Below are positions 1,615 to 56,975 of a DNA stretch of 64,000 nt, one piece after another. Each line of letters opens with the position of its first letter. The stretch's first letter is position 1. The notes beneath the pieces are model-generated. The model had not been told where the DNA came from, made no database searches, and saw only the letters and a list, made by a program, of their open reading frames with translations. The position numbers and the translations under genes are program-made. Origin of the DNA: Agelaius tricolor (lineage: Eukaryota > Chordata > Aves > Passeriformes > Icteridae); NCBI GenBank assembly GCA_023055355.1, contig JALJCS010000001.1, positions 75,185,381 to 75,249,380 on the forward strand, written 5' to 3'.

Positions 1615-1740
1615 GGAAGGAAGGAAGGAAGGAAGGAAGGAAGGAAGGAAGGAAGGAAGGAAGGAAGGAAGGAAGGAAGGAAGGAAGGAAGGAAGGAAGG
1701 AAGGAAGGAAGGAAGGAAGGAAGGAAGGAGGAAAGGAAGG
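1615..1740. repeat. (GGAA)n microsatellite
   Basis: A perfect tetranucleotide GGAA array runs to about 1729 (about 28 units), then an imperfect purine tail to 1740. The purine-only strand extends from about 1590 with GA-rich sequence. The FLPS-repeat ORFs on the other strand are translations of this array. Confidence 0.97.
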
Positions 1741-27939: not shown

Positions 27940-29060
27940 AGGTCTGTGGTTCGAGGCGCTGCGCTCCGCTGGCGGCGGTGAGATGCTGCTTCTCGGAGAT
28001 GAGCCCGAGATGAGAGCGCATCTCGCGCTGCGTTACATGGCAGCGCCTGTCATCATCACAGCCATGGTGCTCGATAACGACACGTTTGTAGCTCTGCCTG
28101 ACAACAGAAGTACATCCCCAGACACTGTTCCGTCTAGACCGGGGAATTTTGCAGAAAAGCATCACTTCTGAGCATCCCTGCGTACCCCAATCCCCGGCCA
28201 AACATCTGCTCTCAAACCAACGCTGCTGCTTCCAATCGCATCGCCTTCACCTTTCATCGCGTACCACTCTCATCCTTCCACAGGGGAGACCCAATCCGTG
28301 CATTAACCCCTTCCTCCCCCGCACCAGCGATCGGCCGCGCCCGGGGTCCCACTCCCGCCCCCCGCTCGGCGCCCCCGCCCTTCGCCGCGAGGCTCCCGTA
28401 AGCACCGACGTGTCCGCGCCCCCCGGGCCCCCCCGCATCCCCCGCCCGCCCGGCCGGTCCCCCGCCCGCTCCGCAGCCGCGCTGGTGCCGCTCGGGGCGG
28501 CGGCGGCGAGCGCGGCTCCGGCACCAACTTTGGGAGCGGAGCGAGCGGAGCATCCCCGCCGGGGGCGGCGCGGCCATGCTGGGGCCGGCGGCGCGGATGG
28601 CGCTGGGCGCGGGGGAGCTGCCGGGGCGGCTGCTGGCGCTGCTCTGGCCGGCGCTGGTGCTGGCGGCCGCCGCGGCCGCGCTGCTCGTCCTGCGGGGGCT
28701 GCGGGACCGAGGGGCCGTGCCGGGACCCCCCCGCCGCCGCGCCGCCGGGGAGGCGCAGGAGGAGGAGGAAGAGGAGGAGGAGGAGGAGGAGGAGGAGGAG
28801 GATGGTCCCGCGGGGGCCGGCGGCCGGGCGGCCGGGGCGCTGCCGGCGCGGCAGCCGGAGGAACAAAGGCGCACGGCGCAGGTAAGGTTAGTGCGGGGTC
28901 GCGCCTGGCCCGCTCCCCGGGACGGGACGAGCATCCTTCCCTCTTCCCTCCCTGGCACCTTTTCAGGGCAGAGAACAGTCCTGCACCCTCTGCGTCCGGC
29001 CCCACCGGGCTGCTGCCATCCCATCTCACCCTGTCTCGTCCCATCCCATCCCGTCCCGCC
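27940..29060 (+). promoter_or_regulatory. CpG-island promoter and 5' UTR region
   Basis: The DNA changes abruptly from AT-rich intergenic sequence to very GC- and CpG-dense sequence around 27.94 kb, peaks between 28.3 and 28.9 kb, and fades after about 29.06 kb. GC-box-like GGGGGCGG occurs just before the start codon (about 28561). No TATA box is evident. The first coding exon lies inside the island, which is the usual arrangement for a broadly expressed TATA-less vertebrate promoter. The exact transcription start cannot be read from sequence. Confidence 0.75.
28576..28881 (+). CDS. MTDH-like: Exon 1: N-terminus, membrane segment, poly-Glu run
   Basis: Encodes residues 1-102 and ends in phase 0 at CAG|GTAAGG. 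I chose the ATG at 28576 because it has G at -3; a second in-frame ATG follows at residue 8 (C at -3). A hydrophobic run from about L19 to L39 is followed by a basic stretch (R40, R43, R45, R53-55), so the bulk of the protein should face the cytosol. Fourteen consecutive glutamate codons (28759-28800) follow. The exon ends with EEQRR, at the same point where human metadherin has EEQKKKNRKK. The human protein has a longer segment before the helix, which is missing here. Sequence is extremely GC-rich; a longer upstream 5' coding part is not excluded. Confidence 0.8.
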
Positions 29061-38000: not shown

Positions 38001-41000
38001 GAAGCATTTGCCAGCATACAGGTGCCTGTCATGCACTTCAAACCAGACCTTCTGAGACTTGTGAAAAATAGCTCTAAAATCCTCAAAATATCAAAGAGAT
38101 GACTATTAAGAGTCTGAAGGATTGCAGCCCCACTAGGTCTGCTGGGGAGAGACATGGGCAGTCACCCACAGGATTTTATCTGCTCCTAACTAATCATGGC
38201 CCCATCTCAGGGACAGAGATGACCTGTCATACTGGGGAGAGGGAGGAGGCAGGGGGAAGCATCAGCTGCCTTCCCTTCCCCAAGGGAACTGGGCACCTGA
38301 ATTCAACAGGGATCAGATGGGTTTTGCTCCAGGCAGGGCTGCCTTCACCTGCCAGGGATCCCCTTGCCCCAGGCAGAGGAGGCAGAGGATGGATCACATA
38401 TTTGGGTGACAGCCTGAGTCAGGCTCCCTTCTGGGAGATGTGGGTTTGGCTGGGCAGCCCTACAGGTCTGATGGGCTGAAGGAAGCCTGGGCAGTGCTGA
38501 ACAGCAGCTGCATTGCACAGGTGGAGTAGCCATACACCCAGCAAGGAGCTGCTCTGTGTGTCAGGGGAAACAGAGGCACCTATGGAGGGAGCTTCAGCCT
38601 TGTCTTGGATGCTGCTGGCTCTGCACAGTGTGCAGTGGCCCTGGCTGGCACAGCCCTTGCTGTCTCAGCTGCAGATTTACATCCTCCCATCCCTGTAGCT
38701 GGTGGCTGGCAATTCCCAGGGAATTCTGAGACAGCTGAGACATTAGTCAAACTATGATTTGAAAAGTCCTTAAACATTTATTGTTTACTTTACTGGATCT
38801 AGGTAGGATAAAATCTATTCTTTTAGTTGGTCAGATAGACTTGAGAGGGAACATAAGGCCCACCCCAACTGGTAAACAAGAATTAAAAATAAGAATATTA
38901 AAATAAGCTCTCTCATGTCTATGCTGTTTCTTTAAGACAGGTTTACCCTATTTAAAAAACAACTTTGATCCTAGACAAATCTTCTGATAAACTACAAATA
39001 TGTCTGCTTTGGAATAAATCTTTCTGGAGTTTCTGGATTTACATTCATAAAGGCTTAGCATACACTAATTAATTTGGAATAAATTACTCCAGTTGGAATA
39101 AGGCCACAAATCCTAGCCCAGATTTGTACAGGGGGTTACTTAGCTGTATCTTTCAGACTATTACATGTATTATAGAAAGGTATTGAATTAAATATATTTT
39201 TATATATATTTACACGTACTCATGCATGTATATGTACTATAATGCATTTTGTTATTGTCCACTTCTTAGGTTCCAGTGAATGGCCATCTTATCACATCAG
39301 TCAACATCAGAGAGAAAAAGCTCCTCAAGGTACAGCAAGAGTTTTAGAGTTTATATATTATCTTTTAAGAGACAGTTGTTTTAAGAATGTTCCTTTTTTA
39401 AGATAGTTTGTTCTTCCTTGGTTTGCTGCACTTAAGAGATGATGTAGGAATATAAGACCATTTAATTTTCTGGCACAGCCACACTGTAGCATTTGTCACT
39501 GCCACCACAAGGGGGATGGTCTCATCATCCAAGCCCAGAATCTGCGTGCTGGAATCTCCGGTATTTCCATTCCAACTCTGACAGGGACATTTCCTTAGGT
39601 CTGTTTAAGGGTTTTACCTTGGGCATTGAGCACTTGTACTGGTATAGAAGAAGAGGCTAATGCTTTAAAGAGCCTCCAAGGCTTTACAGCAAGTTCCAAA
39701 TTGCCCAGAGAAGCTGTCTGCCCTGTCCCTGAAAGTGTTCTAGGCCAGGCTGGATGGGGCTCTGAGCAGCCTGGTCTAGTGGAAGGTGGCAGGGGGGTTG
39801 GAACTGGATGGTCTTTAAGGTTCCTTCCAAACTATTCTGTGATTTTGTGACTTTAAGTGAGGAGCAGCCCCTGAGCCTGGGAATGGAACTACATTTTCTG
39901 GCAGGGGTTTCCCACCTTGGAAAAGTCAAGAGCCACAGTTTAAACTAGAACATTCAAAATTTATGGTTTAGGGTTAGTGCTACCGTTTCATCAAGCTTTA
40001 TGCAACTGGCCTCAGCTACTCCTGTGCCCTTTCAGATTAGTGCAAACTGCAGATACCTTCAGTAAAAATAGGCTGTTCCATGGTTTGAAGTAGGGGGGGG
40101 CAGGTGGGGCTGGGTTTTTTTTGTTAAGCATTGGCAGGGTCCTAACTCTGATTTTCTGATTTTAAAGGGGGTACATACTTCAGACTTTCCTCCTTCAGAG
40201 GAAGAACTTTAGAACTTAGCAACAATGAATACAAATCTTACTATAGAGCGGGTACCTGAATTAAAATGTGAACTTTCTAATCTAGCAGATAAGTTAGGAT
40301 TTGTAGATCCAAAGCAATAGCATTTATTGGTTTGGAATTTGCAATAAAATCTGCTCAGGAAGACTTTTGCACACATTTAAAAGACTCCAGCAACCCTCTA
40401 CTCTCTCTGAGTATCATGGGTTGTCTCCATTTCACAAGTACTACTCTGACTCTTTTTTTCTTCCAGATTAAACATAACAAATACTTGTTTTATCTTTCTG
40501 CTCTATATCTCCTCCATACTGCAGCCTAAGAAGAAGAGGAAAACCCAGTGCTCAGACAAGGAAGTGCCAAAAGATCTGCTTTCTGTGGAAAAAGACAAAC
40601 TGCAAGAGGAAGAAGGTAACAAAAGATCTGATTCTTCTGTTATCTGATGCATACTACCAAATAATAACATGGGATGAAAAATGTCAAAAGGGAGGCATTC
40701 TCCACTATTCTAGAGTTCTGTGTTAGTGGGGAAAACTGCCAATTTGAGAGTTATTTTATCACCTGTTCCTTCCTATGTGTAACTATGTGGACAGGTGCTG
40801 TTGTGATCTGGTTTAATTACAGAGGACTAAAGAGAACTTTTTAGACTCTCCTTGAATAAAATGGATCGAACCCTGGAAGACTTGAATATAACCAAAAAAC
40901 GTGATTCAAACCAAACAAGCTTAGATGTTGATATAAAAAAAATTTATATATTTTATTTAATAGAAAAAGAGGCAAAGAGAAAGAAAGAGAAAAGAAAGAA

Positions 41001-44000
41001 AAATAGAAAAAGAGGTGTGTGGGGGAACAGGGAGAGTGACAAAGGTTAGAAATGTATCACCTCTCCATGGGTTCCAATGATGTCTCATTATTTCCCTCCA
41101 TGTGGTCTCCTTGGTGGTGAGGGTCCCCTGCCTTAAAGTATAGAATCTCATGGATTAATATACATTTGGGCAGGTGGGAATGCCCATGTGCCTCCCCTGA
41201 GGGGGGCAGGTTTGACACTGTCCCTTGCAGCACTGTGGATCTGTTGCATCACGTGCAGTGCTCCAGTGCAGGGTCTGGGGGCTCCTTTGGGAGGGGACTT
41301 TGATGGGCCATGACACCCCTCTGCTGTCCCTCACATGGATGTCCCTTGGATGTGGCTGTCCTGGGTGAAGGGGCCTCACAGCTGAGCTGGTGTGCACAGC
41401 AGAGGATGGGCACTCACTGGCCAGAGGCTGTGCCACACACCCAAACGCTTTCCTCCTCCCCGCCTTGGTGCAGGGTCTGTCTGAGCTTGGCAGCTGATAA
41501 ACCTGGGGCTGTGGCCTCCACCTTGAAGCAGGTGCTGGGCTGGGCCATGGGTGCTCTTCCAGATGCTCTGAACAATAGTGTCACTCTCCTTATCTCAAGT
41601 TGTCCTATGGGTTTAACTCACAGTTTGGGGTTTCAGTCAGGAGGCCCATCCAGGGAGGGCTTTAGGGGTGCAGTTTCATTATGCACTCTTCTTATAAGGG
41701 GCAAAAGTCCTTCATAAAGAGTTTAAGCCACAAACCACAACATTTCAGTCTCTGACATGGGCCATGTGCTTTCCTGCCACACTCCCCAAGTCCTGACTGT
41801 GTACACAGGGAGGGCAAATCTGCAGGTGAGGAAGGATCTCTGAAGTGGTCAGAGGCCCAGTGGTCAAGGGGTCCTTCCTCATGCTCTTCCCCTAATCCTG
41901 TGGCCTCTGCCATGCTGATGCACAGATGGAGCAGCACACTGTTGTGCCCACGACTGAGGCTGGTAAAGGTGCTGGGGCAATTCACAGCTAACTTGCAGCA
42001 TGCCTGTGAGCAGAGCCCAAGCCCTTTGTTTCAAGCAGATCTGCAGAGAAATCTGGCAGAGGCCAGCAAGGCTCAGGCAGCTAGAATTTCACTGTAAAAT
42101 ATATTGCATCCCATGAGCCCCTCTCTGCCTCCCCCCACCATGGTTGCACTGAAAACAACAAATTCTAAGCTTTTCTGGGCTTAAAAGATTACATTGTGAT
42201 TAGTGTGGTGGTGAGAGCAAGAGAAGCCCTCACTGCTGTTGGACCAGAGTCCTTCCTGGGGCCTGTGAGGCTGCTGGGGGAGAAGGGGACACAGCAGAGG
42301 CTTCCTGCAAATGGATCTGTAATTTTTTGAATGGATGAGCCTGCTGAACTGTTTCATGTGTTTTTCAGGAATGCTTCATGTGTCCTTCAGGGATGCTTCA
42401 GAGAAAAGAAGTGTCTTGGTCAGCTCCAGGGCTGTGTTTTTCCTTCATTAACCATTTTTGCCAGCACCTCCTCTGACTTCTTGGGCCATGGAGGGCATGG
42501 ATGGAGACAGGATGTGGCCCCACTGGTGTGAATGAATGTGTCTGTAAACCAGCTGAGTGGGAGAGGGTGTCCACATTGTAGGACAAGTCTTAGGGCTATG
42601 GAACCCAGTAAATAGAAGCCTTATTTAATGGTTAAGATTTACATTAACTGCTCCCCACTGTCAGACATATAAGGTGGCTGATGCTCTGCTGTGACACCTC
42701 TCCCAAGGGAATGGGTGTCACATCAGCCTGACACACAGGACAGAAGAATATGTGCAGTTAGATGGGTCAGGACACAACAGACAGGTCTGTGATGGGGATT
42801 TCTTATGTAACACATCTCTGCAGAGGAAGCAAAGGCTGCACACAGGAGACATGCTGCACAAGATCTGATGCCTCTTTTACAGCCAGCATCAGAAACTTTC
42901 AGATGGCTATTTACCTTGCTGCTGAGCAGTAAAAGCAATGAAGATAGTTGTTTGATAGCTTAAAAATGAACTTCGCTCTATGTTGCAGGAGTTTGGCAGA
43001 CCAAGATCAGCAGCCGTGAAAAGAGACACTTAAGGAAGGAAAGGCTGAAACAAAAAGGTAAATGTACAGGCTCAATTTACACACCTGATCTGGCTGGGCT
43101 GCTTACCCCTCCCCACAGCCCACTGTCTGTTTGCTCTGTTCATCATTTGGCAGCAAAATCCATGCACTTACTGAGGCTATTTACTTAAGAAAAAACAGCT
43201 TTGGGAGCTTTTACTTGGGAGCTTGCCTTTTACTCCATGCTCTCATTAAAACACACAGCAGAGCACACAGCATTACCCACAGGACTTGGAAAGCAGATGT
43301 CTCTTAGATGGTAGATCTGCTGAAGGCTTGGTGTCACGTGGGCTTGTTCTTTTTGCATGGCTTGACGGAAGTTTTCTGATACGGAAAATTGGATGGAATT
43401 TGGATATTGGATGTTTAAAAACACAAATAATTTTCTCAGTTCTAAACAGGTTCTTTAGTCCAGGATTGCCCAGACTAAAGAACTGTAAAAGGAATATACT
43501 CTTATCCTAATGAGATAAAATGAAACAACACTTGGTGCTCACTCCACATTTTTTCTCTGGGGATTTCAGGGTGTCTGCTGTGTACTTATGCCTATACACG
43601 TCTGCTAATCATGTTATATGTAATAACCACTATATGAAAGCAGATCATGGAATTAAGACATTTGGAAATATTTTCATGATCTGTGATAAAATGATCAAAA
43701 TAAACTTTAGGTTTATAATATTAGAGTAATTTAGAAGCTAAGATAGGAATTTGGATATTGGAGATATGTAACTGGATTAGGAGATGTAGCTGGATATATG
43801 TGTGAGTTGGTGCACTGTCTGCAATAAGGCTCTTAAAGTGCTCTCAGGTGCTCTATTAATATTGAAGGGTAAGGGAACAGGAAATTTCAGTAGAAAAATA
43901 TGCAGACACCTTGGGACCACTTTATCTATGATTTGGGTTATATAGAGTTAAATATCAAGAGTTTAGATTTTTAACTCTAGGTTTATCAAGGGTCTTTAGA

Positions 44001-47000
44001 GGCTGGAAGTGCTGAGGTCTCCACTTTCTCTCCAGCAAAGTGAATGGGTCCACATTTCTTTCTTCATGTAAGTTGACCTCTTGTCATCAGTGGTGCCAGC
44101 TCCATCTGCAGAACCCCACAGAGATTAACCCTAAGGTCATGCAGGTGTTAGAGGCTTTGCTGACCCAGGAAAGGGAGCTCAGTTCACCAAGTCTCATTTG
44201 AAGCACCAGAAGTCTTTTGTGCAGTCCTGCAGCCTGGGCTGTGCAGAATGCTGACCCTCTGATCATGCTGGCATGGGCATTTCCAGAGTAGTGAGATCTG
44301 ATCCAGGAAGAAGCCCTAATCCTGCCGAGTGCTGGCTGCTGTTCCCTGGCAGGGGAGAAACAGCAGCATCACCATTAAGGGATGTGAAGGTGGAGTTGGT
44401 GTCAGCAGTTGGTGGTCTCCTCCTCACCAGAGGTCCAGAAAATGCTTTGCTATTCTGAAGGGTGGAGTCATGAAACGCTTCAAGAGTCCTTTGGAACAAA
44501 AATGTTGGAGATAACTGTCATTTTTTAAAATATTCATATGCCTGCACTGATTTCTCTAGCAGCCTTGAACTACCAACATCCAAGAGGTTTGCTTTCTTTT
44601 TTCTTGGAGGTCCAGCTGTTCTCTTTCTCTCCCTTTACTGCTCTGGACCCCCAGCAGGACTCTGGAGGCCTTGAGCCTCCCCTCCAGGGAGGGATGCCCA
44701 AGGCTGCTGTGGCACCATCCTTCTCACATTGGCCTTCCTGTTCTCCACTTCAGTGTCCCATCCCAGGAGCTGTGTTTCACTGCTACCATGTCTGTAAATA
44801 ATTTCAGTTGGAGAGAGTCTGATGGGTTTAGATCAAGCTTTGTTCTGTTTTCTCTCTTGAACAAACTCTTCCTTGTAACTAAAAATAACGATGATCCTGT
44901 GGTAATGTTTGTTCCCGAGAAGACCCCAGCAGAGCATCTCTGGGTAGCTCAGTGGCTGAGCCAGCCTTTGACTGGGACGAGAAGAGAGCAGTGTGGCCGC
45001 TCACAGAGGACACTGGTGGTGGTGGAAAAGGTGCTTTCTTTGCCAAGGCAGAGTGTGGGACTGTGCTGAAGGGCTCAGGAGCCCTACGGGAAGAATTGGC
45101 AACCTCCAGATCAGAAGATGATGTTTTCTCCAATGTAGGTGAGTGTTGACATTCCAGTATTGCTGAGGTGAAGCTTCACAAATTGCTGTGTCCTTGCTGC
45201 AGCCCCACTGGCATTCATCCTGCACACACAGTGTTGTCCAACCCTTTATTTCCCAGCAATGTGAAAAGAGGGGTCCTTATGGCAGGAATTCCTTGTGTTG
45301 TAGATTACCTGCTGGGTGCAAGTTGTTTTCTACCCACAGGTACTATTTGTGTCTTTTACAACCAAAGCCTTGCCTTCTGAGGATGCTCACACATGGTCAG
45401 AGTTAGGCTGCAGGGTGTATCCATGTATTTCAAAAAAGGAAAAGGCAGGATATTCCTAAACTGAAAGCATTTGATTTTGACTACATTCTCAGTGATTATT
45501 GAGCATGGTGGCTGAACTGAATGGTATATAAGGCCACATGATGACTCACCTTCAGTAGCAGTAATCCAGTACTCTCATGATTCAGAAAATGCTCTTAGGT
45601 TGCCCTCATGTGAGTTGCCTTCTCTGCTAGAGTTCTTTTCTTGCCAAGTACAGGGTTGGTGGGGGAGGACATTACTACCATTTTTACTCTAATGCTTTCA
45701 AAAGGCTAAATTCCAATATGTGATGAGAACTTTGCCAGCAGTGCATAAAGGGGGCATCAGTTCAGATGAGTGAGGAATTTAAGTCCAGAGAAGTGTCATG
45801 ACGGTGTGACATGCACGTTGAAGGTCTGAGAAGGTGTACATGGTGATGGGGCTGGACTCTCTCTGTCCATAAAGGTGATTTCTCCTTGCTGGATGCTTGT
45901 CCAGCAACAGCAGTGAATGTAGGCTTGGAATGAAGAGAACATGGAAGAGCTGTAGTGAGCTTGGGAGCATGAGGTAGAAACTGTGAACATGACATGAGAT
46001 TTTGTTTGCATTTTAAATTCAGGAACATGGGATATTGCAGATGTAAAATCCTGCCCTGTGACCTTTGGGACATTGTCAGATCTCTCCAGGGATTTAGGTG
46101 AGTGGCCTCTTGCTGTACTTCTGTCCGAATTCTTCTATCTCTTTCCTAGCTGCTTGGCTGAAAAGAGCTCTCATTGATCACACATGACTCTTCTTCCCTG
46201 GAGCCACATCTCATTAGTCACTCTCCCTTGCAGAGCTTGCTTACATCTGCAATCCAGCACACCAGTGTTTTAGGGAGCAACATTAGAACCTTTACTGAGT
46301 GCTTTCCAAACTCATGTACTCATCTTGGAACAAATTTTAAAAAATACTGCCTCCCCTGCAGATTGTTTCTGTTAGGTTGACTCACACAGAAGGTTTCTGT
46401 TGTGCTCTGATAACCAACAAATTCAGAGAATTTCAGGGCGAGGGAGGGAGTGAATGTGCAGCTTGGAAAGACTGTGTTAGAGGTTGCCTAGCCAGCAGCT
46501 TCTCATCCAGCACAGTGAGGGATTTCTTGCCTGAGCCTTTCCATGCATGGCCTTGAGAAGGATGGAGCATCTCCTCATTTTGCGTTAAGCCTCATTTTTG
46601 GCTTTCACTTTGCATCTTTGCACCTGTCAGTCTTCACTGATTGACTGCATGTGCCCCTGGTTCATACATTCCCTGCCTACCAGAAACTCACTCTGACTGA
46701 AAGTTTAGCTGATGATGAATGCAAAGTCTGGTCCTGAATCCATTAGAGATGCTAAAGACAAGCATAGATACATCTAGATTGTGTACACCTGTGCACAAAA
46801 CAGTGTGTGTGATGTTAGCTAGAATGATGAAATCAGCTTCTAAAGCCAGATAAGGCAATTAATATAACACGTGCCATATTTAACCATCTGTTTTCCAACA
46901 CTTTGCCAGTGGATTCAAGCAGTTCCTAATGTATAAGTACTCAACAAGGAGAAATATTTTTTAACATGTGCATTTATGCAGTAAAAAACCAAAATGATAC

Positions 47001-50000
47001 ACAATGCATAAACCTCAGAGTTTATTAGGTGAAATGAAGAAAGGAAAAAAAACCCAATTTATGAAAGATGTAAAGAATACCCTAATCTTTTATGTACAGG
47101 CCTTAGAAAGGGGCTAAGGGGAGTCATTCAGAGAGGCATGAGAATCCTAGTGGTTGCTTCAGTTACTGAAAGTAATCATCAAAGCAACTTTTTCCTCCAG
47201 CAGCTCTCTCACCTGTGCTCTTTCATGGAGCAATTAATTTGGTAATTATGGATTTCTGTTAGCTTGAGCAGAAGCCTTCTCACTGAAGGTGGTGGGAGTT
47301 GGAGCTGGATACTCTGGATGCGGCTTTTGTTCTGCAGGAACTACAGCTCCCTCCTTAGGTCCCCAACAGAGATGTGCCAGAAGTTTACTTTTCTGAATGC
47401 TGTTAGTGTAGCCACTCCTGAGTGAGTTGTTTTTAATAAGTTATGCATGTAGTGTCCTCGTCCAGCCTTTGTTAATAAATCCACAGTGATGAGATTAATG
47501 TGTGGCTTAAATTACATAACATCCAGGCATCGTGACATAGCGAGCAGACAGAGGCATGATTAATTGGTTTTAATAATGTGAATATACCTATGTGATTATC
47601 TTTTAGGTTTGGGATTTGGGCTTTTTTGGTTTAATTTTTTAATGAAGATGCTTTCCTGTGTGCAGATAACGTGAAGAGTAAATCATCTGAGGACAGTCCT
47701 TCCAGATGCTGTTGGCATGGCAGCTCGACTTTCCTCCCAGCAGATGATGCGTGGCAGGGGCAGGGTACGTCTCTTTGCCCTTCTTCTGTAGACAGACAAT
47801 ACAGGAACTCTCTTCAGTCCATTCCCTAAGCATCAGACATCAGGGTCCACTTCCCATGGGGCTCATTTGCTGATCAGGGAGAAATCCCATGTGGGTCTGG
47901 TTTTGAGCAGGTGCCCAGAGCTGCTGCGAGTCAGTCAGGGCAGCAGTTGTCCAGGTGGAACCCTTGAGAAAGGCAAGAAAATGCATTTTATTTATGTTTT
48001 CCCTCTGAAGAAAAACAAATAATGTGGTAGGTAGTGTCTCTTTTGGTATGTACATACTGGTCCAAACTAGAGCTGCTGGGCAGCTGCAGCTGCTGTAGGG
48101 GGCTGTCTGCAGGCTCTGCAGCAGTGCCCTGCTATCAGCTGTGGGCAGATAAGCACAGGAACAAGGCAAGCACAGGGTGATCCCTCCCCACACCCTGCAG
48201 AGAGCGGGTTAGGGACTTCCTGAGCCAGAGGCAGCAGGATGGGCTCTGTGTTTCAAAAAGCCCCATGTGTTAGCAGTCAACTCAGATTACTAAATTTGTG
48301 AAATGAGTTCAAAGCTGTGTTTGGGTTTCATAACTGAAGCATTGTGTTTCCCTCCCTCCCTCCTATGGTTGTGTGGGAAGGTGGAGCTGAGTGGCCTTTT
48401 CCAGGCAGCTGCAGCCTGGGCTCAGTGGGGTGGCTGGGGGAGAGCCATGGGAGGACGGTGCTTTTCAAGCTCCATGTACCTTTGCCAAAGCTTTAAATTT
48501 CCTTGGAAATGCCCTGAACCCAGATGCAGAATACAACTCCAGTGCATTGTGGCAGTCAGGATTTCAGTCTTTTTATGACTGGTAATGGGTGTTTTTTTAC
48601 TTTTAAAAGAAAGACAAGCATGGGTCCTGAGTGGCTGGAATAATTTGGCATAAACAGAGTGGGTATTAGATGACCTTTTCACTTGACCTTTTGGTCAGGA
48701 TCAAGTGAAGTATTTATATATATATATATATATACCCCTGTTGTTGGGAAGCCTTTCCCTGCTCTTGCAGGAATGATGGCTGATGAGCTGAGCAAACCTC
48801 TTTGTTCTCTAGCTGCTCTGATTGCTTAACTGCAGGAGAACCCAGAGGGGAGGAATGCATTAAGGAGAAAAGATTGTGGTTCTCTTCCTTCTTTGCTCAG
48901 CGGTAACTGAAGCTCTGCAGCAGATGCACCATTTTGGCCATGATTTTATAAATAACACTGTTTGCTTTAAAAAGAATAAAAACAAAACCCCCAACCCTGA
49001 GCCTTCCCTTCCCTTGGTGCTGTGTTTCTTTACCCCTGCGTTGCTGCAAAGAGCGCCTGGCCCTTTCCAACTTTGGAGCCCCGTTGCGCCCACATGGGAT
49101 GGAGGGAGGCAGTGTGGGCAGCTCTTCAGCAGCGTTCCCTTGCACTACATTTAGCACATGTCAGACTTGGCACACTCTGGGCTTGATCTGCACTTGCAAA
49201 GCCAAGCAGAGCTCTGCTTTTGGAGTTCGATATCTGTCTGAGAGTAGAACTATAGGAGCAAATTCAGGAGCTTGCTTCTGCAAACATCAGAGCAGAAGTT
49301 TTTAGAGGATTCAGTCTGTCTTACAGCTTGCTTTTCTGTCCTGGTATTTTTTTTTCTTTTGAATCATCAGCCTTGCTCTTGATGCAGGGGAGGGGTGCGT
49401 CAGGAACATGTATTCCCTGAATTTAGATGAGGTAATGGTTGGCATGAAGGTTGGCGCTGCAAGCAAAATGAGCTCTTAGACAGTTAAACACGCCTGTTAG
49501 CTCTTGCAGGCTTGGGAACTAAAAAAAAAAAAGCCATTCATAGCCTAAATATGACCTGGGGTCATTTCATCAAATCCAGGACAGTACATGTAATGAGTCT
49601 CTTTGTTCTGTGCTGGGCTGGTACAGCCAAAGGAGATGCATGCCGGACTCCTGCCTCTGGCCTGGCTGGTGGAGCTGCCTTGGCCTGCTCCCTGCTCCAC
49701 ATCGGGTTATCTTTCTGTGAAGTACCAGCAATAATAACACCCTCACTTACAAAAGGCTTGAGATTTAAGTGTTGGCACAGCTGAAAGCACATATACACAT
49801 AGGGAGAGAGGAAGTTAGTGGTAAAGGGAACTAGGCAGTCACTTTTGGAATATTTAAAAGACTCTCAATCAGGCTGGTTTCCAAACAACACACTCCTGTG
49901 TTGACATTCATTAATGATATATGCTTGCTGATGGTTAATTCTCAATTATTGTCATATCTGGAGTCCTGTGTCCATTTCTGGGCTCCCCAGTACAAAACAG

Positions 50001-53000: not shown

Positions 53001-56000
53001 TTGTCTATATAGAGGGCGTGGATTTTAAACTGAGAAGCTTAAACAATGTTTATAATCATGTTTATAACATTTGGCAGCAAACTGGTCAGAGCAACTTTTT
53101 GGAAACAGTTTTCTTTTATCATTCCCAGCATGCTTTTGGTTTTGGCCCTGCTTCAAGTAGAAGTTTTTCCATCCCGCTTGGGATTTTTTTTTTTTAAGAG
53201 AAGTAATCAGCTAAGAGTTATTATTATATGTTTTCAAACTTATATTGTGTTTTTAAAGTCATTCTTCCTGTTAGGATAAGACTTAAGATTGTTACATTCA
53301 AATTGTTAAAAAATAATCAAGTAGTCCTTTCAACATCTTATGCTGATTTATCTGCTTTTTTGCACCTCATTCAGTTTGGGTGAAGGAATTAAACTGGTCT
53401 GTTTTGCCTTCTCGACTGAGGATAGTTTGCCAGTGCTTTGTGGAGAGGCAGCTGAGGGCTTGCAGCCAGATTTTCAAAGGTACCAGATGCTGAAAGACAG
53501 AGAAACCTAAACGATTTTGAAAAGTTTTTTGCCCATTTCCCATGAAATTATCAGAATTGACACAGGGTAGGTGTTCTCTATTTCATGCCTGTTTAGAGTT
53601 GTATATCAAGGAGGTTTGGAAATCAGTACTGGGATGGTGCTTTTCTGGCTTACATTCAAGAAAAGAAAATAGAAAAGGAAGATGAAGTTGAGAATGTAGT
53701 TGGTTCTATTTTTTGTAAGAAAGAAAACACCAATGAGAGCAATAATGAATGCACAAATCCTTTGTTAATATTACTCTTCTATATGAATAATTGCCCAGAG
53801 TTTTCTTGAAAAACAAGCTTTACAAAACTAGAAGGGCTTTTGGTTTTGTATGTGCTTTTCTGCCCTTCTTTAATTTTTCTCCTGTCCTGGAGAGTGCTGT
53901 CACTAATTGTGAATTGGCAGTCAATGTATATGTCTTAATACATTTTTAAAATAAATTTGTAAATGTTTTAACACATTTAAGACATGCATACATGCACATC
54001 CAAATATCACATGAGCAAGCAAGAAGATATTTTTGCAGCATTTGTGCTGCTCATGTGAGGCTGGGAAGTAGTATGGATTTGAACATAATTCGTTCATGTG
54101 CGTGCCCTAATAGGTGACCCTTCCATGATTGACCTGGACTCTGACTGGAAGGCTCCCACGGAGGAGTGGGGAAACTGGACTGGAGTTGAGGAACATCAGA
54201 CGAGGGATGAGAAGAAGGTGAGGCAGTGCTGTTGATGGCCAAGGGAGACCTGGTCCACTGGGGTCAGTCTCATCCACACTGGGGTCAGTCTCATCCACAC
54301 TGGGGTCTCCAGTCCAGCCCTGGAGCCAGGCTCCTTTGGTTGTGGGGGCTTTCTCATGCTGGGAGGAAATGCTTGGCATGGTCCCTGCCTCACCTGTCTA
54401 AGATAGCTGGAGCTGGGGAACACACTTGCAGGAGGCATGAGATGGGCTGGGGAGAGCTGGTTGGTTCTGGGAGTTCATCATCCCCCTGTGATCACTGTCC
54501 TAAGCAGCAAACCTTGGGTGTTTGCACCCTACTGCTGCTGACCTTCTCAAATACCCAGGCCTTAAAAGAGGTGTGGAGTCCAGAGCTGACACAGCCTTCA
54601 CAGGATCTCAGGCAGCCAGGACATATTTATTTAAGTTTGCTGATAAGAGGGTTTGGTGACAGTGATACAGTGGTATCTTGGGTGGAGATGTAGAAGCAGA
54701 AGTCTTGCTGTTTAAATGCTTTCTAGAAGCCCAGAGAAATGTTCCCTTTGGGCAGCAGTGGGAAGAGCAGGCTGAGCTTTTTGCAAAGATATGTGTTAAG
54801 CTGAGGTGTGCACCCTATCCAGAGAGACAGCCCCTTGTACACTGTCAACACATACTCCTGGAGGTAATCAGTTTTCCTGAAAAAACCAAAATTAGCTGTC
54901 CCATGACTCCTCTTACAAAATCTCTGATGATTTCAGGATTTGCCAAAAGGCAAAGCAGGCATTCGTTTCTGTCTTTCTGGACCTGAAAGTAAAACACGAC
55001 GGAAGAAGAAGAAGATGGAAGTGAAGGAAGCAAAGGGTGGAGCTGGACTGAGGCATGTGAGTATTTTGTATTCCAAGAGTAGTGTTTGGTTTTCCATTAG
55101 CAGAGGGGGATTCTTCTCTCTTAGGATGACCTAAGGGAGACTTTTCTTCCTCTCTGTCTTCTGGCTTTCTCTTCTCTTTTCTCCCTGTCTTCCCATAAAA
55201 AGCAGTTATGAACACAGGGAACAGTGGAGTTTTGCAACATGGTATTCCCTAACATATTTTCAAAACACTTTGATTTTGCAGTACAGAATGTTGTGCACTA
55301 AACTTGGAATGCATCTGCCTAAACATTTTTTCATCCATGATTAAAACCAGATGCACTCCAAATTTAGCGTACAATTGGCCTGTCTTTCATCTGTAGCTGA
55401 AGGTCACCCAGAGATATCAACAGTAATGAAAAGGTGGTTCCCAAAAGTCAGTGAAGATAAAACAAGGCCATTGTTATACCACTAAAAAGCTTATTGAGAG
55501 AAAAATGTCTCAGAGTGTAATAGAGAAAGGCTGTGGAGAATGTCAGTTCATTTGGGATGGAAAGTGCACAGGAACAGAATGTTGACTGGCTTTTGGTCCA
55601 GTGCTTGCCTGTGACTGGTGTTCAGTGAAATGAGAAATTGTGGGGGAAATGCCTGAAATGTCCAAATTGTATTTCATTCACTTGTCATAGAATGTGTTTT
55701 GGACATGTACAGCTGCATTTTTTTTTTTTAAATCATATGTCTTCCCCTCACACCCACTGTGGTCTCTCATGATCCTCGAGACGATTTTGCTCCCAGATCT
55801 CCTGATGCTCCCATTTTAAGGGACAGGTTTTAACTGCCTGACTGACCACAGTCCACATAATCATTAGGACATCCTAGAGTTCCCAGAGTGCTGCCATACC
55901 TTTTTATATCCTTTTTGGACATAAAAAATGAAATTACTTATGAAGCCAGATCCACAAAGTTGCTCATCCCACTCCAGTGTTTCTGTGGACCCTAGTCACT

Positions 56001-56975
56001 TAGCACTCACTGGGCACATGTTGCTCTTCAGTGTCACTACACGATGACAGTACTTTCATCTCAGTATTTCTTGCTGCTCTTCTGTTCACTGGGAGAAACA
56101 AGGGGAAAAATAACACTGAAAGACAACTTCAACACTTTAATCCCCTCTAAAACAAATAAATAAGAGGTAGGTAGATAACATGGCGAACTATTCTAATCAT
56201 ATAAAAATTTATTTGTCCTGCAGTTTCTTTAAATGCCCCACAATAATGACATTTTCTCTCATATTTTGTACTTGCATATGCTTCGTTTAACTCATATGCT
56301 TAGTGAAGCATATTGTTTCAATTAAGCCCCAGCAAGGTTTGCAAACAAGAATGGAAGAAGGCCCCAGGGACTTGATATCTACAAGAGATAGCAGTGATGC
56401 AGTGAGTGCTTCCTTCGAAAAATCCTTGGACATTGTTAATAATTCACCCAATAATGGTAAGTGATTGTTTTTGCACATCTGATGAATTTTCAGAATAATG
56501 TGTAATCTAAGAAGTATTCACAAATGCATTTTTAAGTGAATATGTGAAATGCTTCTCCTTTAGCTGCATATTTTAATTCTTTGAGAGGCTCTGTATTACT
56601 CAGAGGCTATTCTGACAAATACTTGTTGCTGTTCCTCTCAGAGTTACTGAGCAAAAAAAAAGCTAGTATTGCATTTAGTGACTGTAATTTTTGCACAGCT
56701 CTTTTCAACATGAAACAGAAGCAAATATGAGTGAGTCAGAGCCCACTTAAAAACACTGAGTCCTCCCCATGATTTTGAATTACCCCAGAAAGTAGGTGGC
56801 CCTTGTAAAACACATCTAAAAACCTTTAAATCCTCTTCGTCAGGCAAAAAGCCAACAGTTCTCAGAGATGCAATTGCACGTGGAAGGTTTGTGCATTGTC
56901 CCTGTTGTTTGTATGGCAGGTGTACCTGGAAAAAAGGAGAGGAGGAAGAGGAAGAAAATGAAGAAAGAGACTTGA
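28576..56975 (+). CDS. MTDH-like: Metadherin/LYRIC-family gene, 11 coding exons (span)
   Basis: Joining eleven GT-AG exons gives one open frame of about 429 residues that splices in consistent phase (0,0,1,1,1,1,1,0,0,1). In order it has a 17-18 residue N-terminus, a hydrophobic membrane segment (about 19-39), 14 glutamates (62-75), PKKKRK (123-128), VWQTKISSREKR (154-165), DDAW (289-292), DSDWKAPTEEWGNW (304-317), RRKKKK (351-356), and a basic tail ending KKET. Human metadherin (582 residues) has the same order: membrane helix, AWETKISHREKR, DDEW, SDWNAPAEEWGNW, Lys-rich stretches, and an end in RRET. Known family members are ER/nuclear-envelope and tight-junction scaffold proteins that bind the nuclease SND1. 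Function here is inferred from that family. The protein is shorter and strongly diverged, so a paralog is more likely than the ortholog. Family assignment is firm; ortholog status is open. Confidence 0.85.
29661..29782. repeat. Direct repeat, copy A
   Basis: About 122 bp that recur at 30160-30282 with roughly 80% identity. Shared cores include AAGACAAACAAAATGAATTT, GTGCTATAAAATAA and GAACAGAAATGTGTCAG. The unit is not a repeat family I recognise. Confidence 0.85.
30160..30282. repeat. Direct repeat, copy B
   Basis: Second copy of the 122-bp sequence at 29661, same orientation, offset by 499-500 bp. The 378 bp between the copies shows no obvious retroelement or transposon feature. Confidence 0.85.
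31450..32555 (-). mobile_element. CR1 LINE 3' part, antisense, split by an LTR
   Basis: The minus strand encodes the CR1 ORF2 C-terminus: RLDIRKKFFTTRVVRHWNRL, then PREVVGAPSLQVFKDRLDGA at 31540-31670. The 3' end lies at about 31450-31500 (GAATGGTTTGGGTTGGAAGG on plus). Homology resumes after the LTR at 32238 (CCTGAAGTTATCTCTTTTGC) and continues past ACTCGCTCCAACAGGTCCAT to about 32555. It is 5'-truncated. Confidence 0.92.
31794..32232 (-). mobile_element. Solo LTR of an endogenous retrovirus inside the CR1
   Basis: A 439-bp block interrupts the CR1 exactly. It starts with TG and ends with CA on plus, so on minus it reads TGTCCTGG...CA. Its minus-strand 5' end, with CAGGGTTAATTTT, resembles LTRs common in songbirds and related birds. 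Flanks ATCAC (31789-31793) and GTCAC (32233-32237) look like a 5-bp target duplication with one change. No internal retroviral genes remain, so it is most likely a product of LTR-LTR recombination. Confidence 0.75.
39270..39329 (+). CDS. MTDH-like: Exon 2 (20 codons)
   Basis: A 60-nt phase 0-0 exon after a pyrimidine-containing acceptor (CTTCTTAG) and before donor GTACAG. It encodes VPVNGHLITSVNIREKKLLK, residues 103-122. It sits where human metadherin has PNGRTVEV after the EEQ-basic block, and shares the NG and a following basic stretch. It follows the 10.4-kb intron 1. Because the exon is symmetric, skipping it would keep the frame. Confidence 0.75.
39330..40524 (+). other. Intron 2
   Basis: Bounded by GTACAG and CTGCAG. 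It carries a sense CR1 3' fragment and little else. Confidence 0.75.
39699..39862 (+). mobile_element. CR1 LINE 3' end
   Basis: Sense CR1 tail: TTGCCCAGAGAAGCTGTCTG, GGCTCTGAGCAGCCTGGTCT, GGTGGCAGGGGGGTTGGAAC, and the terminal repeat ATTCTGTGATTTTGTGA. Lies in intron 2. Confidence 0.93.
40525..40615 (+). CDS. MTDH-like: Exon 3: basic PKKKRK motif and acidic tail
   Basis: Starts after ACTGCAG and ends at GAAG|GTAAC in phase 1; encodes residues 123-152 plus the first base of codon 153. It opens with PKKKRK, a textbook monopartite nuclear-localisation signal, and ends with EEE before the next exon's GVWQTK. Human metadherin has a KKNKKKSK cluster followed by KEVDEG at the same place. Nuclear import is an inference from the motif. 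Confidence 0.85.
40616..42988 (+). other. Intron 3
   Basis: Bounded by GTAACA and TTGCAG. Contains an A/G-rich low-complexity stretch at 40960-41020. ORFs of up to 135 codons match no family. Confidence 0.75.
42989..43057 (+). CDS. MTDH-like: Exon 4: conserved family block (W-TKIS-REKR)
   Basis: Lies between TTGCAG and GGTAAATG, 69 nt, phase 1-1, residues 153-175. It encodes GVWQTKISSREKR followed by a basic helix-like run. Human metadherin has GAWETKISHREKRQQRKR here, the best-conserved short block outside the tryptophan motif. This match first identified the family. Confidence 0.92.
43058..44952 (+). other. Intron 4
   Basis: Starts with GTAAAT. No convincing extra exon was found, though human metadherin has residues between the blocks of exons 4 and 5 that are not represented here. 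Confidence 0.6.
44953..45138 (+). CDS. MTDH-like: Exon 5: low-complexity middle region (start uncertain)
   Basis: The donor is clear (AATGTAG|GTGAGT). The reading frame is open from about 44895 to the donor, and encodes AEPAFDWDEKRAVWPLTEDTG and onward to SEDDVFSNV, residues 176-237. The last part resembles the human exon end SDRSIFSGIG. The acceptor is ambiguous. CTCAG|TG at 44953 keeps phase with exon 4, and GAG|CA at 44935 would also fit (six more residues). The stronger CCCCAG at 44929 does not fit unless an unseen exon lies in intron 4. Confidence 0.68.
45139..46022 (+). other. Intron 5
   Basis: Bounded by GTGAGT and TTCAG; nothing else recognised. Confidence 0.75.
46023..46097 (+). CDS. 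MTDH-like: Exon 6 (25 codons)
   Basis: Acceptor AATTCAG, donor TTAG|GTGAGT, 75 nt, phase 1-1, residues 238-262. It encodes GTWDIADVKSC and ends in SRDL. I see no clear counterpart in human metadherin as I recall it, so it may be lineage-specific or too diverged to align. Both splice sites are strong and the phase fits its neighbours. Confidence 0.78.
46098..47665 (+). other. Intron 6
   Basis: Bounded by GTGAGT and TGTGCAG; no repeat or ORF of note. Confidence 0.75.
47666..47764 (+). CDS. MTDH-like: Exon 7: DDxW exon
   Basis: Acceptor TGTGTGCAG, donor CAGG|GTACGT, 99 nt, phase 1-1, residues 263-295. It carries W279 and DDAW at 289-292. The human counterpart exon has the same coding length (about 34 residues with the split codon), a tryptophan in the middle and DDEW near its end. 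The match in length, position and motif makes this a confident exon although overall identity is low. Confidence 0.82.
49945..50330 (+). mobile_element. CR1 LINE 3' fragment
   Basis: Sense CR1: GGAGTCCTGTGTCCATTTCT, CAGAGATATACTGGAGAAGG, GTGGTCAGGCAACAGAACAG, GTGGGACTAGACAATTTCCA, ending near GATTCTGAAATTGTCATTCTG. An older, more diverged copy than those at 15.5 and 39.7 kb. Confidence 0.88.
52489..52542. repeat. 27-bp tandem duplication
   Basis: Two identical adjacent copies of a 27-bp unit starting TCAGAGCTTTGGGATAAG. Perfect identity suggests a recent event. Confidence 0.95.
54114..54217 (+). CDS. MTDH-like: Exon 8: SND1-binding-type two-tryptophan motif
   Basis: Acceptor CCTAATAG, donor AAG|GTGAGG, 104 nt, enters in phase 1 and leaves in phase 0, residues 296-330. 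It encodes DSDWKAPTEEWGNW with W307 and W314 seven residues apart. In human metadherin the equivalent SDWNAPAEEWGNW segment inserts two tryptophans, also seven apart, into pockets of the SND1 staphylococcal-nuclease-like domains. The near identity here, in a poorly conserved protein, suggests that SND1 binding is kept. Confidence 0.92.
54218..54936 (+). other. Intron 8
   Basis: Bounded by GTGAGG and TTTCAG. Carries a 21-bp tandem repeat shortly after the donor. Confidence 0.8.
54258..54307. repeat. 21-bp tandem repeat near the exon 8 donor
   Basis: Two perfect copies of CTGGGGTCAGTCTCATCCAC-A plus the start of a third (CTGGGGTC). Confidence 0.95.
54937..55056 (+). CDS. MTDH-like: Exon 9: Lys/Arg-rich region
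   Basis: Acceptor GATTTCAG, donor CAT|GTGAGT, 120 nt, phase 0-0, residues 331-370. It contains SKTRRKKKKMEVKE (349-362). Human metadherin has a polylysine stretch (GKSKKKKKKKKK) in this part of the protein, known there as a nuclear-localisation signal. As a symmetric exon it could be skipped without a frameshift. Confidence 0.85.
55057..56332 (+). other. Intron 9
   Basis: Bounded by GTGAGT and CCCCAG. It holds the 27-bp-stem hairpin described separately. Confidence 0.75.
55291..55374 (+). ncRNA. Hairpin, possible intronic microRNA precursor
   Basis: Arms 55291-55317 and 55348-55374 pair at 24 of 27 positions (one G-U, three mismatches, no bulges) around a 30-nt loop. The size and mismatch pattern fit a pre-miRNA hairpin in the sense strand of the host intron. 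A short palindromic transposon remnant would look the same. No known miRNA seed was recognised. Confidence 0.35.
56333..56456 (+). CDS. MTDH-like: Exon 10: Ser-rich acidic linker
   Basis: Donor AATG|GTAAGT is strong. The acceptor CCCCAG at 56332 was preferred over an in-frame AAG six bases upstream (56326), which would add two residues. Encodes residues 371-411 with STRDSSDAVSASFEKS. The human protein has a comparable Ser/Asp-rich stretch before its C-terminus. The polypyrimidine tract is weak, so the exact start carries some doubt. Confidence 0.78.
56457..56919 (+). other. Intron 10
   Basis: Bounded by GTAAGT and TGGCAG; no features recognised. Confidence 0.8.
56920..56975 (+). CDS. MTDH-like: Exon 11: basic C-terminus and stop
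   Basis: Acceptor TATGGCAG, then 18 codons and TGA at 56973-56975. Encodes GVPGKKERRKRKKMKKET, residues 412-429. The family C-terminus in human is KKKKKARRET, so both a basic cluster and a final ET are shared. This cluster is probably a nuclear/nucleolar localisation signal by analogy. Confidence 0.88.

What the first reader, a model, noticed from the sequence alone, without database searches (positions are those of the whole stretch)
28576..56975. Divergent second member of the metadherin/LYRIC family
Exon order, phases and short blocks (W-TKIS-REKR, DDxW, DSDW-AP-EEWGNW, basic ET terminus) identify the family. The rest is unlike human metadherin, and the protein is about 429 rather than 582 residues with a different N-terminus. 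Vertebrate MTDH is, to my knowledge, well conserved in exactly these blocks. A copy this diverged in a bird is therefore better explained as an ancient paralog, perhaps lost in mammals, than as the ortholog.
Basis: partly seen in the sequence, partly recalled or inferred. Interest (0 to 1): 0.75.

Follow-up and report, generated by a model that had tools for sequence, protein, structure and literature searches.

The report
Ancient sister gene of metadherin
This bird carries, besides the well-known cancer-linked gene metadherin, an intact and faster-changing sister gene that most likely dates from the genome duplications at the origin of vertebrates; databases hold it only as an automatic "LYRIC-like" entry.

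Summary
The finding holds. Window 28576-56975 (+) carries an intact 11-exon gene for a 442-residue LYRIC-family protein (Pfam LYRIC above cut-off). The same genome has a separate MTDH on contig C2: 623 residues, 27% identical, matching intron phases. Gene order and orientation match in two blocks: SDC1, this gene, LAPTM4A, MATN3 (C1) and SDC2, MTDH, LAPTM4B, MATN2 (C2). In a 28-row tree it groups with LYRIC-like proteins of birds, turtles, coelacanth and ray-finned fishes, apart from MTDH (100/100); an avian-only or amniote-only duplication is rejected. It is best read as a 2R ohnolog of MTDH. No named hit is mammalian, crocodilian, lepidosaur, amphibian or galliform. The protein is already in databases as 'LYRIC-like' (nearest Agelaius phoeniceus, 1 of 339 residues different); no paper listed in my ten searches describes the ohnolog. 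Likely mechanism (inferred): a membrane-anchored, lysine-rich scaffold that binds SND1 through a retained two-tryptophan motif. New member of a known kind; moderate interest.

The parts
28576..28881 (+). coding exon 1 (phase 0 out): short N-terminus, hydrophobic anchor (residues about 15-44), acidic run
   Evidence: hydropathy
28636..28692 (+). most hydrophobic 19-residue segment, ALLWPALVLAAAAAALLVL (predicted membrane anchor)
   Evidence: mean Kyte-Doolittle 2.47
39270..39329 (+). coding exon 2 VPVNGHLITSVNIREKKLLK (phase 0-0)
   Evidence: same phases as MTDH exon 2
40525..40615 (+). coding exon 3 PKKKRK...EEE (phase 0-1)
42989..43057 (+). coding exon 4 GVWQTKISSREKRHLRKERLKQK (phase 1-1)
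   Evidence: conserved in both subfamilies
44920..45138 (+). coding exon 5 (phase 1-1); acceptor at 44920 or 44923 (tandem GAG/AAG), as database proteins differ there
46023..46097 (+). coding exon 6 GTWDIADVKSCPVTFGTLSDLSRDL: block typical of LYRIC-like proteins and not found in MTDH
   Evidence: GTW..P[VL]TFGT in 94 of 115 LYRIC-like and 0 of 120 MTDH-type ids
47666..47764 (+). coding exon 7, ends ADDAWQGQ (99 nt, as in MTDH exon 8)
54114..54217 (+). coding exon 8 with the two-tryptophan motif DLDSDWKAPTEEWGNW, aligned to the LYRIC peptide 4qmg_F
   Evidence: SDW-x6-W in 108 of 115 LYRIC-like ids
54937..55056 (+). coding exon 9 DLPKGK...RRKKKK (120 nt, as in MTDH exon 10)
56327..56456 (+). 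coding exon 10 (phase 0-1)
56920..56975 (+). coding exon 11, basic terminus KKERRKRKKMKKET and stop TGA

Best explanation
The gene is an intact 2R ohnolog of metadherin (MTDH/LYRIC/AEG-1): the copy in the SDC1-LAPTM4A-MATN3 block, sister to MTDH in the SDC2-LAPTM4B-MATN2 block. Shown: gene structure, family membership, a separate MTDH in the same genome, paralogous synteny, deep tree position. Inferred: like MTDH it makes a single-pass, membrane-anchored (probably ER and nuclear envelope), lysine-rich and mostly unstructured scaffold. Its two tryptophans (SDW and EEW) would dock SND1, and its basic clusters would serve nuclear targeting or RNA and protein contacts. A block found only in this subfamily (GTWDI..K..PVTFGT) would give it a partner or regulation that MTDH lacks. 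Likelihood: ohnolog identity about 0.97, SND1 docking about 0.55.
For: Eleven open, phase-compatible exons with GT-AG introns. Pfam LYRIC over cut-off. Match to the LYRIC peptide of 4qmg (that this entry is a complex with SND1 is recalled). Separate MTDH on C2 with 13 coding exons; the ten LYRIC-like intron phases equal those of MTDH once two MTDH exons are left out. Same neighbour order and orientation on C1 and C2, with partial counterparts on C36 and C23. Tree split 100/100 in two data sets. AU tests reject an amniote-only duplication (p 6.6e-49; repeat 8.2e-37) and an avian-only one (p 1.9e-7). SDW-x6-W is kept in 108 of 115 LYRIC-like ids, the other 7 being models without that exon, and in 120 of 120 MTDH-type ids. 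The seven-residue spacing fits W394 and W401 of human AEG-1, named as key residues for SND1 binding in PMC12025727 (passages read). Hydrophobic N-terminal segment in both proteins; K+R 17.6% against 14.4% (76). PMC1464127 describes the syndecan-matrilin-LAPTM4 paralogous regions (passages read).
Against: Only short blocks align; identity to MTDH is 110 of 405 positions. On matched paths the gene changes 2.2 to 2.9 times faster than MTDH (70, first tree). Long branches (reedfish, coelacanth, gar) were flagged, and the AU groups were named after the tree was seen. The poly-lysine exon 9 is absent from all 5 non-avian rows of A1 and weakly conserved overall (0.42 against 0.81, 76). The wider tryptophan block is not fully fixed: reedfish P0122 reads EEWGHF. 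No chondrichthyan ortholog was seen. No expression, binding or localisation data; the SND1 step rests on sequence alone. A fifth, weak syndecan match at C1:11919302 (31.9 bits) was not explained.
Confidence: 0.85

Rival explanations
1. It is the avian MTDH ortholog itself, fast-evolving in this species.
For: It shares the LYRIC family blocks and exon phases with MTDH.
Against: A separate conserved MTDH exists in the same genome. Mycteria and Pelodiscus have one row in each clade.
Confidence: 0.01
2. It is a lineage-specific (avian or amniote) duplicate of MTDH that diverged fast.
For: Long branches and a faster rate in the LYRIC-like clade.
Against: Coelacanth and ray-finned members group with it; AU p 1.9e-7 (avian) and 6.6e-49 (amniote). 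It sits in the SDC1-LAPTM4A-MATN3 block, the counterpart of MTDH's block. A sturgeon model fuses it with LAPTM4A (P0121), so the linkage looks as old as bony vertebrates.
Confidence: 0.02
3. It is a decaying pseudogene.
For: Faster rate than MTDH and two exons fewer.
Against: All 11 exons are open with GT-AG introns. The Agelaius protein differs at 1 of 339 residues and the Passer one at 13 of 340. P0010 (source lgn, organism not named) is a 335-residue frame from within exon 2 to exon 11 on a contig of at most 1480 bases, as only a spliced transcript or its copy could give. Orthologs run from ostrich to passerines.
Confidence: 0.03
4. It is an intact MTDH ohnolog, but its kept function does not involve SND1 and lies in the paralog-specific block or the membrane anchor.
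For: The exon-6 block is as conserved in this subfamily (0.71) as the tryptophan exon (0.70) and occurs in 94 of 115 LYRIC-like but 0 of 120 MTDH-type ids.
Against: The two tryptophans at the same spacing are kept in 108 of 115 LYRIC-like ids and match the LYRIC peptide of a solved structure.
Confidence: 0.3

Closest known systems
MTDH / LYRIC / AEG-1 (Pfam PF15686)
   Same: Exon order and phases, N-terminal hydrophobic anchor, W.TKIS.REKR block, DD.W, SDW.AP.EEWGNW, basic ET end.
   Different: 442 against 623 residues in the same genome, 27% identity, short N-terminus, two MTDH exons without counterpart, acidic run in exon 1, its own exon-6 block, 2.2-2.9 times faster.
'protein LYRIC-like' database entries (e.g. 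P0001 Agelaius phoeniceus)
   Same: Same gene: 1 of 339 residues different over exons 2-11.
   Different: Automatic annotation; some entries of this subfamily are called Metadherin, LYRIC, uncharacterized protein or, as fusions, LAPTM4A.
Syndecan-matrilin-LAPTM4 paralogous regions (PMC1464127)
   Same: SDC1-4 regions with matrilins, and LAPTM4 and KCNS members near most, described there as duplicates of one region (passages).
   Different: LYRIC and MTDH have 0 occurrences in that text; this gene and MTDH add a further paralogous pair.

Membership tests
LYRIC family (PF15686) | Score above the curated Pfam cut-off | tested here: met
   39.8 bits against 30 on the 397-residue early model; the 442-residue model was not rescored
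LYRIC family (PF15686) | SND1-binding tryptophan motif | tested here: met
   by sequence only: 4qmg_F alignment, E 6e-4; SDW-x6-W in 108 of 115 LYRIC-like ids, 7 models lack the exon
LYRIC family (PF15686) | N-terminal membrane segment | tested here: met
   hydropathy only: best 19-mer mean 2.47 at residue 21; own MTDH 2.54 at residue 51
LYRIC family (PF15686) | Shared intron phases in order | tested here: met
   0,0,1,1,1,1,1,0,0,1 against MTDH with two extra exons; which two is ambiguous, because neighbouring MTDH introns share a phase
MTDH orthology group | Falls within the vertebrate MTDH clade | tested here: not met
   100/100 split from 11 MTDH rows
MTDH orthology group | Sits between SDC2 and LAPTM4B | tested here: not met
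   lies between SDC1 and LAPTM4A; MTDH itself is at C2 between SDC2 and LAPTM4B
MTDH orthology group | LXXLL motif at residues 21-25 of human AEG-1 | tested here: inconclusive
   only LLALL at 19-23, inside the hydrophobic segment; the bird's own MTDH has LXXLL only at 63-68, also inside its hydrophobic segment
2R ohnolog pair | Paralogous neighbours in the same order and orientation | tested here: met
   SDC, LYRIC, LAPTM4, MATN on C1 and C2
2R ohnolog pair | Duplication older than the split of ray-finned and lobe-finned fish | tested here: met
   LYRIC-like rows from both groups join the window gene; amniote-only duplication rejected
2R ohnolog pair | Copy in cartilaginous fish | tested here: inconclusive
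   shark rows were MTDH-type only
2R ohnolog pair | Single copy in a pre-duplication outgroup | not tested
   no lamprey or amphioxus row was obtained

The most novel reading that the evidence does not exclude
Besides its own product, the locus makes in-frame read-through transcripts into the next gene. A LYRIC-like phase-0 exon is joined to LAPTM4A exon 2, putting an SND1-binding module on a lysosomal membrane protein, and this has been kept from sturgeon to birds. Basis: predicted proteins P0051 (penguin) and P0063 (goose), joined after LYRIC-like exon 9, and P0121 (sturgeon), joined after the tryptophan exon, which ends ANEKQ. Both genes lie on the same strand about 10 kb apart, and LAPTM4A exon 2 reads in that frame from its first base in this genome. 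Gene-prediction error is the simpler reading.
Probability: 0.1. Interest if true: 0.65.

Novelty: new member of a known kind. Interest (0 to 1): 0.45.

Why it matters
To my knowledge metadherin is treated as a gene without relatives; the review passages I read call it highly conserved in vertebrates and name no sister gene (PMC12025727). A retained ohnolog would make its apparent single-copy state in mammals a derived one. It also offers a natural experiment: lineages with one or with two SND1-docking scaffolds. It warns that avian, turtle or fish 'MTDH' records may be the paralog: several LYRIC-like hits are named Metadherin or LYRIC (e.g. P0013, P0014, P0026, P0061, P0075, P0119).

Tried and rejected
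Rejected: the ortholog, young-duplicate and pseudogene readings (see rivals). Third or fourth copy: tblastn with seven queries and five queries found nothing below E 0.1 in 120 kb between LAPTM5 and SDC3 on C36, nor, with the five, in 42 kb around SDC4-MATN4 on C23. The same five queries did find the window and the C2 locus, but MTDH queries found the window gene by one exon only, and LYRIC-like queries found MTDH by one exon only, so a very diverged copy could be missed. Rfam: nothing at gathering scores in the window. Splice-site scans: the loose scan gave 17 candidate extra exons, of which one (46023-46097) was real; it missed 39270-39329. Literature: ten searches listed no paper whose title or abstract start describes an MTDH paralog in vertebrates; listings were cut at 10-20 titles where more papers matched. 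I read passages of PMC1464127, PMC12025727 and PMC3523547 only; the one 'paralog' in the last concerns HLA-G. No structure prediction was run (protein expected, from general knowledge, to be mostly disordered).

Weak points: the own-MTDH sequence used in A2 and the first tree lacked exon 5 (23 residues) and had one wrong residue (S for T before KSEESW). It was corrected and the tree repeated, with the long-branched Erpetoichthys row dropped and stricter columns; the avian-only AU test and the rate ratios were not repeated. Trees used 26 and 25 rows chosen from 235 database proteins plus the two of this genome. No ray-finned MTDH row was obtained, because only the best 120 of 1161 MTDH hits were listed. 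One search scored only the 7991 candidates sharing most words. Of the 11 fish species, Conger, Gymnothorax and Acipenser oxyrinchus were typed by score and motif only. Human MTDH was recalled and used as a reading guide only.

Full report
Observation. On the + strand, 11 coding exons between 28576 and 56975 join in phase to a 442-residue protein. All 10 introns are GT-AG. One acceptor is uncertain by a codon (44920 or 44923). The early 397-residue model scores 39.8 bits with Pfam LYRIC (cut-off 30) and matches the PDB LYRIC peptide 4qmg_F (E 6e-4). Over exons 2-11 it differs from the Agelaius phoeniceus 'protein LYRIC-like' at 1 of 339 residues and from Passer at 13 of 340, so the bird is probably an icterid songbird (inference; family of Agelaius).

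The same genome's MTDH. A family search finds six MTDH matches on C2 at 73.48-73.50 Mb, minus strand, and none elsewhere. From fetched DNA I read 13 coding exons and 623 residues. Aligned to the window protein, 110 of 405 positions are identical. By that alignment window exons 1-4, 5, 6, 7, 8, 9, 10 and 11 correspond to MTDH exons 1-4, 6, 7, 8, 9, 10, 12 and 13. The ten intron phases (0,0,1,1,1,1,1,0,0,1) equal those of MTDH after leaving out two exons; exons 5 and 11 fit best, but neighbouring introns share a phase, so the choice is not certain. The two profiles align with 99.7% probability over 106 columns.

Synteny. Domain and protein searches place syndecans, LAPTM4/5 and matrilins. C1 (+): syndecan at 75119772; this gene at 75213956-75242355; LAPTM4A, start codon near 75252338, last match to 75264853; matrilin at 75279707. 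C2 (-): syndecan at 73799891; MTDH at 73501505-73470547; LAPTM4 matches between 73427433 and 73412677; matrilin at 73314318. C36 (-): syndecan at 6268325; LAPTM matches at 6149417-6132134; matrilin at 6098637; no LYRIC copy found between syndecan and LAPTM. C23 (+): syndecan at 4652124, matrilin at 4693188, no LYRIC copy found. One more weak syndecan match, C1:11919302 (31.9 bits), is unexplained. The individual names SDC1-4, LAPTM4A/4B/5 and MATN1-4 are inferred from this arrangement, from P0051's LAPTM4A name and from PMC1464127. That paper lists LAPTM4A and MATN3 beside SDC1 and LAPTM4B and MATN2 beside SDC2, and argues that the four regions derive from one ancestral region; LYRIC and MTDH do not occur in it (passages and counts). 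The order syndecan-LYRIC-LAPTM4-matrilin on C1 and C2 is what whole-genome duplication would leave.

Tree. With 28 rows and 634 columns, 17 LYRIC-like rows (window, six birds, two turtles, Latimeria, gar, two paddlefish rows, three elopomorphs, reedfish) separate from 11 MTDH rows (this genome, three birds, Alligator, two turtles, four cartilaginous fish) with 100/100 support and in 100% of 200 bootstrap trees. Holding bird rows of both kinds together costs 417 log units (AU p 1.9e-7); holding amniote rows of both kinds together costs 138 (p 6.6e-49). With corrected MTDH, without reedfish, 27 rows and 435 columns give the same split (100/100) and reject the amniote-only grouping again (p 8.2e-37). 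The groups were named after the first tree was seen and long branches are present, but the margins are large. Each subfamily spans an old split (birds with ray-fins in one, birds with sharks in the other), so wherever the root lies the duplication is at least as old as bony vertebrates. Coelacanth grouping with ray-fins rather than tetrapods (94/91) is probably long-branch pull.

Distribution. Searches list 112 and 116 proteins. Besides many birds and turtles they name 11 LYRIC-like fishes: Polyodon, two Acipenser, Lepisosteus, Erpetoichthys, Latimeria, Anguilla, Conger, Gymnothorax, Albula, Aldrovandia. P0106-P0112, P0124 and the unnamed P0123 are MTDH-type, as one search confirms. Waterfowl are present (Anas, Anser, Cygnus, Cairina), but no galliform, crocodilian, lepidosaur, amphibian or mammal is named. 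MTDH of Gallus, Numida, Cyrtonyx and Alligator is listed, so proteins of those species are in the database. Repeated loss is the natural reading, but rows stand for clusters, names are cut, some rows have none, and candidates were capped; this is not a genome-level proof.

How it works. Shown by sequence: a hydrophobic segment near the N-terminus and basic clusters, and SDW-x6-W in 108 of 115 LYRIC-like ids, the other seven being models that lack this exon. From the literature: in human AEG-1, W394 and W401 are key for binding SND1, residues 50-77 anchor it in the ER membrane, and lysine-rich regions act as nuclear signals (PMC12025727, passages). Inference: the paralog is an anchored scaffold that docks SND1. 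The exon-6 block GTW..P[VL]TFGT occurs in 94 of 115 LYRIC-like and 0 of 120 MTDH-type ids, so a paralog-specific contact is likely. Against a close functional match: the poly-lysine exon 9 is missing from all five non-avian rows of A1, reedfish reads EEWGHF, and the gene evolves 2.2 to 2.9 times faster than MTDH on matched paths. P0010, a 335-residue frame on a contig of at most 1480 bases running from exon 2 to exon 11, is best read as a spliced transcript of a related bird; other proteins of the same source (P0099, P0100) run into introns.

Verdict. The gene is already in sequence databases as an automatic 'LYRIC-like' annotation. Its status as the 2R ohnolog of MTDH in the SDC1-LAPTM4A block did not turn up in the ten literature searches named under Tried and rejected.

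Noticed in passing
P0051, P0059, P0063, P0121; this genome C1:75242355-75259018: Predicted 'LAPTM4A' proteins of penguin, flycatcher, goose and sturgeon begin with LYRIC-like exons. P0051, P0063 and P0121 join a LYRIC-like phase-0 exon directly to LAPTM4A exon 2; P0059 joins later with extra residues between. Either gene-merging errors or read-through transcripts.
   Followed up: partly
P0128: A UniRef record assigned to the bacterium Kangiella spongicola is a 601-residue LYRIC-domain protein scoring among the sharks: presumably contamination of a bacterial assembly.
   Followed up: no
P0226: A turtle protein with the LYRIC domain, 71% identical to this bird's MTDH, is recorded as 'aryl-hydrocarbon-interacting protein-like 1' (Platysternon): misnamed record.
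   Followed up: no
window 44917-44925: Tandem acceptor (GAG/AAG) at exon 5; database proteins of related birds show QKDPS, QKEDPS or QKADPS there.
   Followed up: partly
window 56910-57025: The last exon is also open in another frame with an acidic stretch (GEEEEEENEERDLRELC); a predicted stork isoform (P0015) uses that frame.
   Followed up: no
C2:73483526-73483440: This bird's MTDH has an 87-nt exon (AAWNVDARINTSEQ...) corresponding to LYRIC-like exon 6; human MTDH as I recall it lacks this exon.
   Followed up: partly
window 1615-1741: GGAA microsatellite, about 32 copies, 96% matches.
   Followed up: no
C2:73314318 and C2:73799891: A matrilin lies on the same contig and strand as the SDC2-type syndecan here; the 2006 syndecan study found none near chicken SDC2 (passage), so that gap may have been due to the assembly.
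   Followed up: no
C1:11919302-11919427: Fifth, weak syndecan-domain match (31.9 bits, above the family cut-off of 25.2), far from any of the four paralogous blocks.
   Followed up: no
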